DNA of 27,078 bases from NCBI GenBank assembly GCA_003647375.1, contig QMMS01000020.1:1-27078 (forward strand). Direction: 5' to 3'. The position numbers and the translations under genes are program-made. Under the pieces are notes generated by a model that was given only the letters and a program-made list of their open reading frames with translations, had not been told where the DNA came from and searched no databases. Position 1 is the first letter of the stretch. The number at the start of each line of letters is the position of its first letter. This stretch comes from Deltaproteobacteria bacterium. GTDB lineage: Bacteria > Desulfobacterota > Desulfobacteria > Desulfobacterales > B30-G6. This document shows, piece by piece, positions 1 to 27,051 of this stretch.

Positions 1-63
1 ATTTAACCCGGAGTAATAGCGTGCTATTTTGAGGAGTTAAATCATGCCGTCCAACGCCGATAT
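1..63 (+). repeat. Structured dispersed repeat, copy A
   Basis: Seen: an outer stem ATTTAA (1-6) pairs with TTAAAT (37-42). An inner stem AATAG (15-19) pairs with CTATT (24-28) around the tetraloop CGTG. Between the stems lies a symmetric internal loop, CCCGGAGT (7-14) facing TTGAGGAG (29-36). Nine bases after the outer stem comes a box CAACG-N2-GATAT (52-63). Copy B at 2172-2232 has the same architecture, loop sequences and spacing but different stem bases. Bases upstream of position 1 are missing, so the element may be longer. It could be a structured RNA or a mobile DNA hairpin; function unknown. Confidence 0.6.
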
Positions 64-156
64 CGCGGAAAAAGACCATTTGTGGATGGGCACTAGTTAC
101 AAATTATGACCGTTTGGCCAGCTATTAGTATAAAAAGTAACAATAAGCAAACCAGA

Positions 157-198
157 ATAAATTCGTTTCACGAATTTATAAAACACGACGTTGTCGCT
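157..198 (+). repeat. Hairpin repeat, copy C (10-bp stem, TTC loop)
   Basis: ATAAATTCGT (157-166) pairs perfectly with ACGAATTTAT (170-179) around the loop TTC. Six bases later comes CGACGTTGTCGCT (186-198), itself a small CGAC/GTCG hairpin. The same layout and spacing recur at 2033-2074. Here no gene end is visible next to it, although the window starts only 156 bases upstream. The rest of 1-297 shows no open gene; it holds this hairpin, copy A of the structured repeat, and the leader of the U32 gene. Confidence 0.6.
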
Positions 199-297
199 CC
201 TATGCAAAGTGATTTGATTTTGTCCCCGCACTGTAAGCAGCGAAGCAGAATTGAATTTTAACTTGTATATTTACCATCTGCCCCTTAAAGTAATTGA

Positions 298-1524
298 ATG
301 AAACATAAGACACACCCAAAACCGGAACTGCTGGCTCCCGCCGGAAATTTCGAAAAACTCGAGATCGCCATTCACTTTGGTGCGGATGCTGTCTATCTGG
401 CCGGAAAAGATTTCAGTTTGCGAAATTTTTCCGGAAATTTTACGATGGACGAGATGCAGCAAGCGATTATTTTTGCCCATGAAAACAAGGTCAAGGTGTA
501 TGTAGCCTGCAACACCTTCCCCCGCAACCACGAGCAGGAAGCCATCGCTGAATTTCTGTCATCTATAGGGAAGATTAATCCGGATGCCATCATTATTTCA
601 GACCCCGGCATCCTTGCCATGGCCAGGGAGCGGGTACCACAGACACCCATACACCTCAGCACCCAGGCCAACACCACCAATTACAATGCCGCCCGGTTCT
701 GGGAATCACAGGGTGTCAAAAGAGTGAATGTGGCCAGAGAATTAACCCTGCCGGAAATTGAAACCATCACCGAACGCACCAGTCTTGAGGTCGAAGCCTT
801 TGTGCACGGCGCCATGTGCATGGCCTATTCCGGGCGCTGTCTCCTGAGCAGTTTCATGGCGCTACGTGACAGCAATCGTGGAATGTGCTGCCATCCCTGC
901 CGGTTCCAATACGCCGTTGTGGAAGCGAAAAGGCCGGGGCAGTATTATGAACTATCCGAAGATACCAGTGGAACCTATATCTTCAATTCCAGGGACCTCT
1001 GCATGATCGAACATATCCCTGAAATGATTGCCACCGGCATTTCATCTTTGAAAATAGAGGGCCGCATGAAGGGCATCAACTATCTCTCCTCCGTGGTCAA
1101 GATCTACCGCGAAGCCATCGATGCCTATGCCCTCGATGCGGAAGCTTATCATGTACAACCGGAATGGATCGTAGAGCTCGCCAAGGTCAGTCACCGGGAA
1201 TACTGCACAGGGTTCTATCTGGGTGACCCGGAGCAGGTGTCCTCCAATATCGATGGCCGCATCAGCGCCGGGCTGCTATTTCTGGCCAAAGTTTTAAAAG
1301 CGAACGGGAACGGACAGATGGTGATTGATGTGCGCAACCAGCTGCGCAGGAATGACAAAATCGAAATAATCTCCGCCAGGGGCCCTGTCCGAACAGATAA
1401 CATCCTGAAAATTGTGAATGACGACAACCAGGAAGTGGATGTCGTCAACCCCGGCAGCCGGGCCGAGATCACTCTTGGAAGCGATGCTTCCCCCAACGAC
1501 ATTATCAGAAAGGTACCACTATGA
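298..1524 (+). CDS. Peptidase U32 family protein (TrhP/YegQ-like)
   Basis: The 408-residue product opens with PELLAPAGNFEKLEIAI and GADAVYLAG, the usual start of U32 proteins. It carries the family signature from E166 to S184 (EAFVHGAMC followed by SGRC and LLS). Cysteines C174, C181, C197, C198 and C201 form the cluster typical of the group. U32 members were first described as collagenase-like peptidases, but several (TrhP/YegQ, RlhA, UbiU/V) act in RNA or quinone hydroxylation, and the cysteines are thought to bind iron-sulfur. The length fits TrhP-like members that hydroxylate tRNA U34, which I infer but cannot prove. The ATG at 298 has only a weak ribosome site (AAAG about 8 bases upstream). 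Its TGA stop overlaps the next gene's ATG by 4 bases, so the two are probably co-translated. Confidence 0.9.
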   Translation: MKHKTHPKPELLAPAGNFEKLEIAIHFGADAVYLAGKDFSLRNFSGNFTMDEMQQAIIFAHENKVKVYVACNTFPRNHEQEAIAEFLSSIGKINPDAIIISDPGILAMARERVPQTPIHLSTQANTTNYNAARFWESQGVKRVNVARELTLPEIETITERTSLEVEAFVHGAMCMAYSGRCLLSSFMALRDSNRGMCCHPCRFQYAVVEAKRPGQYYELSEDTSGTYIFNSRDLCMIEHIPEMIATGISSLKIEGRMKGINYLSSVVKIYREAIDAYALDAEAYHVQPEWIVELAKVSHREYCTGFYLGDPEQVSSNIDGRISAGLLFLAKVLKANGNGQMVIDVRNQLRRNDKIEIISARGPVRTDNILKIVNDDNQEVDVVNPGSRAEITLGSDASPNDIIRKVPL

Positions 1525-2036
1525 AAGGATACCTCCAAGTCTACACCGGTAATGGGAAAGGCAAAACAACGGCCGCACTGGGACTTTCCCTGCGTGCAGC
1601 AGGGGCTGGTATGAAAGTTTACATTGCCCAGTTCCTCAAGCAGGGAGACTATAGCGAAATCAAAGCCCTGGAACGATTTTCAGATGCCATTGTTCTGGAG
1701 CAGTTCGGTCTTGGGCACTTCGTCAAAGGCCAACCCACCCAGGCGGAAATCGATGCCGCACGAGACGGTCTTGATAAAGCACGGCAACAACTCTCTTCAG
1801 GAGACTACGATATGGTTATCCTGGAAGAAGCCAATATTGCAGCGGCGGTCGGCCTTTTTTCCGTCAAAGACCTCATGGATGTTATCCAGAAAAGACCCGA
1901 TCACGTGGAACTGGTGATCACAGGAAGAAGTGCCGCGCCCGAGGTGATGGAAAAAGCAGACCTCGTGACGGAAATGAAGGCCGTCAAGCATTATTACGAC
2001 CAGGGTGTTCAGGCAAGAATAGGTATCGAAAAATAA
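1521..2036 (+). CDS. cobA: Cob(I)yrinic acid a,c-diamide adenosyltransferase (CobA/BtuR type)
   Basis: The 171-residue product has the family P-loop G10-NGKGKTT-17 right after the N-terminal strand, then FLKQGD and, further on, DMVILEEANIAAAVGLF and ELVITGRSAAPEVMEKADLVTEM. These match CobA/BtuR/CobO enzymes, which transfer the adenosyl group of ATP to the cobalt of reduced corrinoids in the cytoplasm. Length is normal (170-200 residues). The ATG lies inside the U32 gene's last codons (ATGA overlap), with AAAGG 8 bases upstream, so translation is coupled. No other cobalamin genes are in the window, so it may serve corrinoid salvage or be part of a scattered pathway. Its TAA stop (2034-2036) lies inside the stem of hairpin repeat D. 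Confidence 0.93.
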   Translation: MKGYLQVYTGNGKGKTTAALGLSLRAAGAGMKVYIAQFLKQGDYSEIKALERFSDAIVLEQFGLGHFVKGQPTQAEIDAARDGLDKARQQLSSGDYDMVILEEANIAAAVGLFSVKDLMDVIQKRPDHVELVITGRSAAPEVMEKADLVTEMKAVKHYYDQGVQARIGIEK

Positions 2037-2074
2037 ATTCGTAAAACGAATTTATGAGACGCGACGTTGTCGCT
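2033..2074 (+). repeat. Hairpin repeat, copy D, overlapping the cobA stop codon
   Basis: ATAAATTCGT (2033-2042) pairs perfectly with ACGAATTTAT (2046-2055) around AAA. After six bases comes CGACGTTGTCGCT (2062-2074). This is nearly identical to copy C at 157-198 (same arms, same 6-nt gap, same second box). The cobA stop codon is inside the 5' arm. There is no long T-run after the stem, so a simple intrinsic terminator is not obvious. Confidence 0.65.
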
Positions 2075-2133
2075 TTTAAGAGCAGATGATTGACATACCT
2101 TCCAGTATATATCCGCGATAGAAGTGGTTTCAG

Positions 2134-2238
2134 GCCGTTCAATTGAGTTCAAGATCAAGACGGGGCGAGATGTTCACCCGGAGAAATACTGTTGTATTTT
2201 GAGGATTGAACGGCTCACCACAACGAAGATATTGAGCC
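2134..2238 (+). repeat. Structured dispersed repeat, copy B
   Basis: The core repeats copy A: outer stem GTTCA (2172-2176) with TGAAC (2207-2211), internal loop CCCGGAGA (2177-2184) facing TTGAGGAT (2199-2206), inner stem AATAC (2185-2189) with GTATT (2194-2198), tetraloop TGTT, then CAACG-N2-GATAT (2221-2232) after the same 9-nt gap. A further stem GGCTCA (2212-2217) with TGAGCC (2233-2238) encloses that box. A competing 10-bp pairing is possible between GCCGTTCAAT (2134-2143) and ATTGAACGGC (2205-2214). It lies between the convergent cobA and outer-membrane protein genes. Confidence 0.6.
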
Positions 2239-2262
2239 CAAGGGGATGGCATGAAATCATTT

Positions 2263-3015
2263 CTAGAAGCTGATGGTAAGTGCTCCGTAGGGCCCGGCCG
2301 TGGTAAAATTAGATTCCAGGTCATCCACATCCACATCAACGGCAAAGCTCCGGTATCCGGCATGGATACCTACAAATGGAAACGGAGTGTAGGAGATGTC
2401 CCCCAGGAATTCCACCACACTATTACCGCTGTAACCGATACCGGTCACCTGGAATCGTGCTTCGATGATGTCTGCCAGGATGCCGATGTGTAGGTTGGCG
2501 CCAACCATGGGGATCGGGCCGGAAATATCAACCTCTTCACTCTCACCGCTCCCCTCCACCTTGGCCGAGGTGATATCGAGGTACTTCACCTTTCCCACGA
2601 GTCCCAGAGAAGTGCCGGCCAGAATATTTTCAAGATCGATGGCATCCCACTGGTAGGCGAAGTCCATGACCCTGTATTCGAGTTTGCTTTTCACGTTGGT
2701 ACCGGCATCAAATTTACTACCACCAAATTTAATCTCCTGGTTTATCCTTTCACTGCCACTGTAGTCAGCCTTGTAATAGGTAAATATCAGGTGGTGGGCG
2801 CCAAAGCCGGCGAATATTTCAACCATGGGGTATGATTCCGAATCCATCCCGAGATCGTCGTCCAGATCGAGAGTGTCCTCGGATTCGTAATTGATATCCC
2901 CATCCAGGTCCGGCATCCAGTAGTATCCCCGGACACCCAACTCAAACGCAGCCGAGGGCGCTGCTGCAAACACAAAACATACCGTCACACCCAGTAATAT
3001 CCATTTTCTGGACAT
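2263..3015 (-). CDS. Outer-membrane beta-barrel protein, function unknown
   Basis: The 250-residue product has a clear signal peptide: SRK, a hydrophobic run WILLGVTVCFVFAAAP, and a likely cut after SAAF or SAA near residue 23. The mature part alternates polar and hydrophobic residues in strand-like stretches (FELGVRGYYWMP, HHLIFTYYKADYSG, SKLEYRVMDFAYQW, EARFQVTGIGYSG) and ends in ALTISF with a C-terminal phenylalanine, the usual signal for the BAM complex. It is probably an 8- to 10-strand barrel. An acidic patch (DDDLGMDSES) could bind cations. The start has an excellent site, AAAGGAGG 7 bases before ATG. It lies downstream of feoB on the same strand, but hairpin E and 119 bases separate them, so a shared role in iron uptake is only a guess. 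Confidence 0.8.
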   Translation of the reverse strand: MSRKWILLGVTVCFVFAAAPSAAFELGVRGYYWMPDLDGDINYESEDTLDLDDDLGMDSESYPMVEIFAGFGAHHLIFTYYKADYSGSERINQEIKFGGSKFDAGTNVKSKLEYRVMDFAYQWDAIDLENILAGTSLGLVGKVKYLDITSAKVEGSGESEEVDISGPIPMVGANLHIGILADIIEARFQVTGIGYSGNSVVEFLGDISYTPFPFVGIHAGYRSFAVDVDVDDLESNFTTAGPYGALTISF

Positions 3016-3111
3016 ATCAATTCCTCCTTTATCGCACTGCTATCAAGTTTAACAAAGGTGGTTTTATGTTCCAAGATAGAGAATATTAACAAAGGGGCCG
3101 TTGGATGTCAA

Positions 3112-3136
3112 AATAAATTTATTTCATAAATTTATT
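3112..3136. repeat. Hairpin repeat, copy E, overlapping the feoB stop codon
   Basis: An 11-bp perfect stem, AATAAATTTAT (3112-3122) with ATAAATTTATT (3126-3136), has the loop TTC on the plus strand, the same loop as copy C. On the minus strand it covers the feoB stop codon (3135-3137) and is followed by TTTTGACA, so it may act as a weak terminator for feoAB. Confidence 0.6.
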
Positions 3137-21095: not shown

Positions 21096-21130
21096 AATTA
21101 CACTCCTTTTATTTTTTAATTTGAATTCCC

Positions 21131-21153
21131 ATAAAATTGTAAAACAATTTTAT
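21131..21153. repeat. Hairpin repeat, copy F, just after the tctA stop codon
   Basis: ATAAAATTGT (21131-21140) pairs perfectly with ACAATTTTAT (21144-21153) around AAA. On the minus strand it begins two bases after the tctA stop. It has the same 10-bp stem plus 3-nt loop plan as copies C, D and E, but different bases inside the stem. Confidence 0.6.
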
Positions 21154-26953: not shown

Positions 26954-27051
26954 CAGGAGACAGAAGTCAGAAGCCAGAAGTCAGAAGTCAGAAGTCAGAA
27001 GCCAGAAGGCAGGAGGCAGGAGGCAGGAGGCAGGAGGCAGGAGGCAGAAGA
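26954..27051. repeat. Heptanucleotide tandem repeat, 14 units
   Basis: Fourteen consecutive 7-base units run from CAGGAGA at 26954, through six CAGAAGT/CAGAAGC units (26961-27002), CAGAAGG, then five CAGGAGG units (27010-27044), to CAGAAGA at 27045-27051. The unit drifts from CAGAAGT to CAGGAGG in order, as expected for slippage-driven growth. The strand is purine-rich. It begins 6 bases after the rarD stop and no gene covers it. Confidence 0.9.

What the first reader, a model, noticed from the sequence alone, without database searches (positions are those of the whole stretch)
1..2238. Two copies of a structured repeat with compensatory base changes
Copies at 1-63 and 2172-2238 share outer stem, symmetric internal loop (CCCGGAG[A/T] facing TTGAGGA[G/T]), inner stem with tetraloop, and a CAACG-N2-GATAT box at the same 9-nt distance. 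Loop bases are conserved but stem bases differ in matched pairs: at least three positions (A-T to C-G, T-A to G-C in the outer stem; G-C to C-G in the inner stem) keep pairing while changing both bases. Covariation between only two copies is already evidence that the folded form is selected, either as RNA or as a DNA hairpin substrate. A second stem around the box exists in copy B but not clearly in A.
Basis: seen in the sequence. Interest (0 to 1): 0.75.

Follow-up and report, generated by a model that had tools for sequence, protein, structure and literature searches.

The report
Mobile element with conserved folded core
The two repeats are copies of a very widespread family of tiny gene-free mobile DNA elements whose middle keeps one strand-specific fold even when its letters change, which suggests that the folded form itself does a job that is still unknown.

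Summary
Observation confirmed. Both copies are real; conserved loops and paired stem changes hold. Copy A is cut by the window's left edge; B spans about 2119-2265. They belong to a large MITE-like family, mostly about 145-195 bp, with terminal inverted repeats (TIRs). A model built only from 12 Nitrospira copies finds B (E 3.7e-6), A only weakly (0.21). A combined model finds copies in 58 of 96, 61 of 148, 20 of 148 and 11 of 200 genomes sampled around deltaproteobacterial, Nitrospira, Bacteroidetes and gammaproteobacterial records. Loop letters stay while stems covary (score 0.814 against 0.204 shuffled). G.T exceeds A.C on this strand (84:48 states), mainly in inner stems: the plus-strand fold seems selected, as RNA or single-stranded DNA. 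TIRs differ between and within genomes; one class leaves 6-bp duplications, another only TA, so different transposases probably carry one core. A and B look like these two classes. No orientation bias to neighbouring genes, nor to replication in one genome. Y1/RAYT genes were not found in two high-copy genomes. No Rfam match, autonomous partner or paper on it was found. The core's job is unknown.

The parts
1..93 (+). Element copy A, left part beyond the window edge missing; GTGTCC-type TIR class
   Evidence: 2 differences in 93 positions to L053, whose full element has left TIR GTGTCCGTCCAGAAAT
7..13 (+). Copy A loop 1, left side CCCGGAG
   Evidence: CCGSAG in the 52-row alignment A8
15..28 (+). 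Copy A inner hairpin AATAG-CGTG-CTATT
29..35 (+). Copy A loop 1, right side TTGAGGA
36..42 (+). Copy A outer stem, 3' arm (can pair with 1-7)
   Evidence: read
52..61 (+). Copy A loop 2, right side CAACGCCGAT
78..93 (+). Copy A right TIR, ATTTGTGGATGGGCAC
   Evidence: same end in Ww484 copies with 6-bp duplications
94..99 (+). Putative target duplication TAGTTA next to copy A (left partner outside the window)
   Evidence: inferred; TAGTTA flanks both sides of Ww484 copies L041 and L081; 6-bp duplication shown for this TIR class in another genome
2119..2265 (+). Element copy B, complete, 147 bp, ends TAGAAGTGG / TTTCTA; resembles the GAAGC-TA TIR class
   Evidence: folds end to end, -60.3 kcal/mol
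2119..2136 (+). Copy B left TIR
2156..2162 (+). Copy B loop 2, left side CAAGACG
2172..2176 (+). Copy B outer stem, 5' arm GTTCA (pairs with 2207-2211)
2177..2183 (+). Copy B loop 1, left side CCCGGAG
2185..2198 (+). Copy B inner hairpin AATAC-TGTT-GTATT
2199..2205 (+). Copy B loop 1, right side TTGAGGA
2207..2211 (+). Copy B outer stem, 3' arm TGAAC
2221..2230 (+). Copy B loop 2, right side CAACGAAGAT
2248..2265 (+). Copy B right TIR

Best explanation
Both copies are short non-autonomous mobile elements of the MITE kind. DDE transposases encoded elsewhere move them by their TIRs (TIRs and, for one class, target duplications are shown; the enzymes are inferred). What sets the family apart is its centre: a conserved core that folds on one strand into a rod with an apical hairpin, loop 1 (CCGSAG facing TYGAGGA) and loop 2 (CAAGGC facing AACGCAG). 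Selection keeps the fold on that strand (supported by covariation and by G.T/A.C asymmetry). I think most likely the element is transcribed and this hairpin RNA acts in the element's own cycle, through its purine-rich loops and a widely conserved host factor, to help the element persist or spread (inferred). Different TIR sets, with different target duplications, carry the same core, so the core behaves as a module that uses several transposases (shown as an association; the exchange itself is inferred).
For: A model built from 12 Nitrospira copies finds window copy B (E 3.7e-6) and nine of 21 Ww484 loci given at E <= 0.01 (two of the nine are one place). Combined model R2, whose seed includes copy B: 58 of 96 relatives of G001, 61 of 148 in the phylum of G002, 20 of 148 in that of G003, 11 of 200 in that of G285. 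Covariation over 52 copies from 47 genomes and the window: 91.3% of cells paired against 55.4% shuffled; score 0.814 against 0.204, 0 of 500 shuffles as high; slid controls at most 0.172. G.T over A.C: 84:48 distinct states, p 0.002; singletons 59:33, p 0.009; interior stems 62:31, outermost 20 bp 22:17 (123 elements of 5 genomes). Identical 6-bp flanks at 12 of 45 G085 elements, chance 1.3%, against 0 of 20 in the TA class of G053. Core type I occurs with four named TIR classes, and the GTGTCC class carries both core types. High copy number: 390 and 984 TIR hits in G053 and G085, controls 5 and 1. No orientation bias to genes in 89 contexts.
Against: No transcript data: RNA against single-stranded DNA is not settled. 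In G085 and G001 the G.T excess is weak by distinct states (30:27 and 13:10), and a strand-biased mutation process could mimic it. Two of the five measures do not clearly exceed the shuffles (pairs with double changes 392 of 500, further pair types 27 of 500). The Nitrospira-only model finds copy A only weakly (E 0.21; 0.021 with filters off). Elements with the same TIR but without the apical hairpin exist (36, 55, 81 and two of 105 bp in G085), so the core is not needed in cis for mobility. No autonomous partner: 88 of 93 TIR pairs are 130-200 bp and none is transposase-sized (two TIR classes only, overlapping loci counted twice). Nothing shows directly that the loops bind a factor.
Confidence: 0.55

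Rival explanations
1. Single-stranded DNA hairpin element: a HUH enzyme (RAYT/IS200-like) or an integron-type recombinase recognises the folded plus strand and moves it.
For: One strand is selected to fold, with conserved unpaired bases and free stems, as in REP substrates (passages of PMC8266576). PF01797 is present in 90 of 96 genomes around G001.
Against: TIRs and 6-bp duplications point to a DDE enzyme. G053 and G095 have 45 and 40 core matches (45 candidates scored each) and no PF01797 match; completeness of these assemblies is not told. In G249, 13 copies lie with the plus strand leading and 12 lagging (one genome, small number, origin estimated from 20 GC-skew samples). No conserved GTAG or CGTC tag in the consensus, although both tetramers occur inside or at the edge of the inner stem of some copies.
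Confidence: 0.15
2. Ordinary palindromic MITE: the fold is a by-product of long inverted repeats, and the loops look conserved only through common descent and horizontal spread.
For: Whole elements fold end to end, as described for other MITEs (passages of PMC10969869). Core-less relatives with the same TIR exist.
Against: Loop letters stay across the sampled groups while stem letters are largely replaced in pairs. G.T exceeds A.C inside but hardly in the TIRs. The core is shared between TIR classes.
Confidence: 0.17
3. Cis-acting RNA (terminator, mRNA stabiliser or processing signal such as RNase III sites) kept for its effect on neighbouring genes.
For: Position between genes in the contexts examined, stable hairpins; RNase III cuts Correia elements in mRNA (passage of PMC10969869).
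Against: No orientation preference: in same-direction gene pairs the plus strand is sense in 20 and antisense in 31 (genes called by simple ORF rules).
Confidence: 0.08
4. Self-cleaving ribozyme carried by a mobile element.
For: Two conserved internal loops with about 20 near-invariant letters.
Against: No match to any Rfam family at gathering score; none at E up to 10 for window 1-2600 and only weak miscellaneous hits for two short stretches. No activity test.
Confidence: 0.05

Closest known systems
MITEs (e.g. Chunjie in Geobacter, QMITE2 in Coxiella, Correia elements)
   Same: Short, no ORF, TIRs, target duplication in one class, high copy number, transcript predicted to fold as a long hairpin
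   Different: Core with loop letters conserved over the sampled groups and covarying stems, shared by different TIR sets; the review passages I saw (PMC10969869) describe no such core. The Chunjie paper was not held, so no sequence comparison was made.
REP/REPIN with RAYT (TnpA-REP)
   Same: Palindromic, intergenic, many copies, strand-specific fold with conserved unpaired bases
   Different: Typically 142-194 bp instead of 20-50; no conserved GTAG tag; TIRs and, in one class, 6-bp duplication; high copy number in two genomes where PF01797 was not found
CGTC-tagged REPs (PMC3733652, passages)
   Same: Palindromic repeats also reported from Chlorobi and Bacteroidetes, with no dedicated transposase
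   Different: Those are short, tagged CGTC at one end, with tails fitting CCA; no conserved tag of this kind in the 52-row alignment. No direct sequence comparison was made.
Bridge RNA of IS110 (PMC11208158, start of abstract only)
   Same: Folded non-coding RNA with two loops linked to a transposable element
   Different: IS110 lacks TIRs (recalled); here loop letters are fixed rather than guide-like; no recombinase gene in the element

Membership tests
MITE | Terminal inverted repeats | tested here: met
   Left and right ends align as inverted repeats in the listed copies, a few with low scores; window B ends TAGAAGTGG / TTTCTA
MITE | Target site duplication | tested here: met
   6 bp in the GTGTCC class, 12 of 45 exact against 1.3% by chance. 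The GAAGC class, which copy B resembles, shows only TA at both ends, 0 of 20 with more than 3 further bp
MITE | Short, non-coding, many copies | tested here: met
   33 of 45 G085 elements are 142-149 bp, G053 sample 142-194 bp; 390 TIR hits in G053, 984 in G085. Lack of coding judged by reading; the short frame after copy A's hairpin stops early in L041
MITE | Autonomous element with the same TIR | tested here: inconclusive
   None among 93 TIR pairs in the loci scanned; whole genomes were not scanned pair by pair; the 1.18-kb pair L220 encloses an ORF that reads as MutM/Fpg by eye
REP/RAYT system | Conserved GTAG (or CGTC) tag at the hairpin foot | tested here: not met
   52-row alignment shows CCGSAG and TGAGGA beside the inner stem
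REP/RAYT system | Y1 transposase gene in host | tested here: not met
   G053 and G095 carry 45 and 40 core matches and no PF01797 match, assembly completeness unknown; 90 of 96 genomes do have PF01797
Integron attC | R/L boxes and a nearby integron integrase | not tested
   TIRs and duplications make it unlikely
Rfam RNA families | Match at gathering score | tested here: not met
   Window and six loci, no match
RNase III-processed repeats (Correia/NEMIS type) | Cleavage of the transcribed hairpin | not testable with these tools
   No RNA data here

The most novel reading that the evidence does not exclude
The core is an independent selfish RNA (or folded single-stranded DNA) module that has acquired the ends of several unrelated transposases, an 'end-swapping' satellite of transposons spread over at least four bacterial phyla, whose fold recruits a universal host factor.
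Probability: 0.3. Interest if true: 0.85.

Novelty: new variant of a known kind. Interest (0 to 1): 0.62.

Why it matters
Bacterial MITEs are usually taken as derivatives of one insertion sequence (passage of PMC10969869). Here the same folded core recurs in distant groups inside different ends, with hundreds of TIR hits in some genomes and signs of selection for the fold. That makes a testable case for a functional nucleic acid carried by gene-free elements. It also gives a covariance model for annotating many unexplained intergenic repeats, and it may explain contig breaks in metagenome assemblies (several copies lie at contig ends).

Tried and rejected
REP/RAYT: disfavoured because PF01797 was not found in two high-copy genomes and because of TIRs with duplications. 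Cis-regulatory role: no orientation bias. Replication-strand bias: none in G249 (13:12, or 14:11 with shifted origin and terminus); G040 was sampled too but its GC skew was irregular, so it was not used. Autonomous partner: none found; the 1.18-kb TIR pair in G113 encloses a MutM-like ORF (named by eye). Plasmid collection: no match for the L053 element. Pattern hits L001 (Bacteroidetes record) and L006 (gammaproteobacterial record) are taken as chance: R2 finds nothing in those two genomes. Viral pattern hits L008-L039 (32) looked like chance matches in coding DNA by eye; they were not tested with the model. Dropped rows: one search kept 108 of 135 pattern copies (20 of the 27 rejected come from G002 or its relatives, where the outer stem is offset by a base); its mismatch counts are not used, because G.T counted as paired in that selection. 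One search used 89 contexts of those 108 copies. L071 was left out of seed A2 because of an extra base; L040, L047, L056 and L059 were excluded as chance matches.

Literature: searches; passages of PMC10969869, PMC3733652, PMC12306157, PMC8266576, PMC10907252 and PMC12542641 were seen; PMC2267715 gave no hit for the terms. None of what I saw describes this core. ISfinder could not be searched.

Full report
What was claimed and what is there. Copy A is truncated by the window edge. A copy in the deltaproteobacterial record Ww484 (L053) differs from it at 2 of its 93 positions and shows the missing left arm. Copy B is complete from about 2119 to 2265 and folds end to end. A lies upstream of a peptidase U32 gene; B lies between a cobalamin adenosyltransferase gene and a convergent ORF without a Pfam match.

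A family. One pattern scan of the species genomes gave 7 hits; five are members (two in Ww484, three in a Nitrospira record) and two are taken as chance. Model R1, built only from 12 copies of the Nitrospira genome, found copy B at E 3.7e-6 and nine of 21 Ww484 loci given at E <= 0.01 (two of the nine are one place), but copy A, truncated, only at E 0.21, 0.021 with filters off. In a first survey R1 found 7 of 40 relatives of G002. Model R2 (46 copies, seed including copy B) was then run over 592 genome slots: 58 of 96 relatives of G001, 20 of 148 in the phylum of G003, 11 of 200 in that of G285, 61 of 148 in that of G002. The number of candidates scored per genome was capped at 21-45, so copy counts are lower bounds. 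The tools name only the seed records (Deltaproteobacteria, Nitrospira, Bacteroidetes, Gammaproteobacteria); that several positive G003-phylum genomes are green sulfur bacteria is my guess. Of ten loci from the G285 phylum, some (e.g. L279, L280, L282, L285) show the architecture clearly by eye and some (L278, L283, L284) do not.

Structure. In 52 copies from 47 genomes and the window, conserved letters are CAAGGC, CCGSAG, TGAGGA and AACGCAG plus a TA step in the inner stem. All 11 outer-stem pairs and 4 of 6 inner pairs change on both sides; 91.3% of cells are paired against 55.4% shuffled, covariation score 0.814 against 0.204, slid controls at most 0.172. Two measures do not clearly exceed the shuffles there: pairs with double changes (392 of 500 shuffles as high) and further pair types (27 of 500). 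The alignment is fitted to the model and hits are chosen partly for pairing, so these figures lean upward. The earlier alignments gave the same picture.

Which strand and which molecule. In 123 elements of five genomes (14, 9, 66, 14 and 20, found by BLAST with one representative each in fetched loci) I counted one-sided changes at consensus Watson-Crick pairs. G.T exceeds A.C on the plus strand: 174:88 cells, 84:48 distinct states (p 0.002), 59:33 singletons (p 0.009). The direction is the same in all five genomes (13:10, 16:2, 30:27, 17:8, 8:1 distinct states). Interior stems give 62:31, the outermost 20 bp of stem 22:17. Of the 132 distinct states, 83 lie in stems that the model does not score as pairs. 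I read this as selection for folding of the plus strand, RNA or single-stranded DNA; the ends hardly show it. Copies are related, and a strand-biased mutation process is not excluded.

Ends. In G085, 33 of 45 TIR-paired elements are 142-149 bp; in a G053 sample 10 of 20 are 145-147 bp and others reach 194 bp, some with an extra hairpin inserted; the Nitrospira copies are longer. TIRs differ between genomes and within one. The GTGTCC class leaves 6-bp duplications: 12 of 45 exact in G085, chance 1.3%, and single cases such as TAACTG, TATCTC and GATTTA. The GAAGC class of G053 has only TA: 0 of 20 with more than 3 further identical bp. Copy A ends like the first class and copy B resembles the second. 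Of 104 distinct cores sorted by loose patterns, type I occurs with four named TIR classes, and the GTGTCC class holds 8 type I and 33 type II; 38 have other ends. So ends and core are not strictly linked. In G085, 13 of 45 elements fail a loose core pattern; five of them (36, 55, 81 and two of 105 bp) lack the apical hairpin, so the core is not needed in cis for mobility.

Tests of function. Flanking genes show no orientation preference (89 contexts: 31, 21, 20, 17). In G249, 25 copies split 13:12 relative to replication. PF01797 (Y1) is present in 90 of 96 genomes but was not found in G053 and G095, which hold 45 and 40 core matches. No autonomous partner was seen in 93 TIR pairs of two classes.

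Interpretation. Shown: mobile-looking, TIR-ended, gene-free family; conserved fold with strand asymmetry; several end classes. Inferred: DDE enzymes in trans; RNA as the selected molecule; a host factor bound by the purine-rich loops; exchange of ends. Because the direction of neighbouring genes (and, in one genome, of replication) does not matter, I place the function in the element's own cycle rather than in host gene control.

Known or new. No Rfam 15 family matches at gathering score; permissive scans give nothing for window 1-2600 and only weak, unrelated hits for two short stretches. Eight paper searches found MITE, REP and stem-loop surveys but nothing on this core in what I saw. ISfinder and most subscription papers were out of reach, so 'unreported' is provisional.

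Noticed in passing
154-179, 2030-2055, 3110-3135, 21128-21153: A second dispersed palindrome, AATAAATTCG...CGAATTTAT (73-100% to the reference copy); at the first two sites it is followed by CGACGTTGTCGCT (60-nt repeat 139-198 and 2015-2074, 77% identity). It flanks the same U32/cobalamin gene pair.
   Followed up: no
26954-27051: Array of imperfect 7/14-nt repeats CAGAAGT/CAGGAGG at the window's right end.
   Followed up: no
L162, L175, L171, L133: Neighbouring copies of the element on the same strand at spacings of roughly 90-270 bp (often 143-148), some with sequence between units.
   Followed up: partly
L094 (G001): Element with a TIR like that of copy A but a different apical part, weakly matched by R1 on the other strand.
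   Followed up: partly
L046, L052, L061, L068 (G002); L346, L347, L351, L352 (G053): Elements in which, by eye, an extra hairpin is inserted in or beside a loop while much of the core stays.
   Followed up: partly
G085 contig starts, e.g. C4, C17, C31: Several contigs of this assembly end inside an element, with a TIR about 81-103 bases from the edge, as if the hairpin stops assembly.
   Followed up: no
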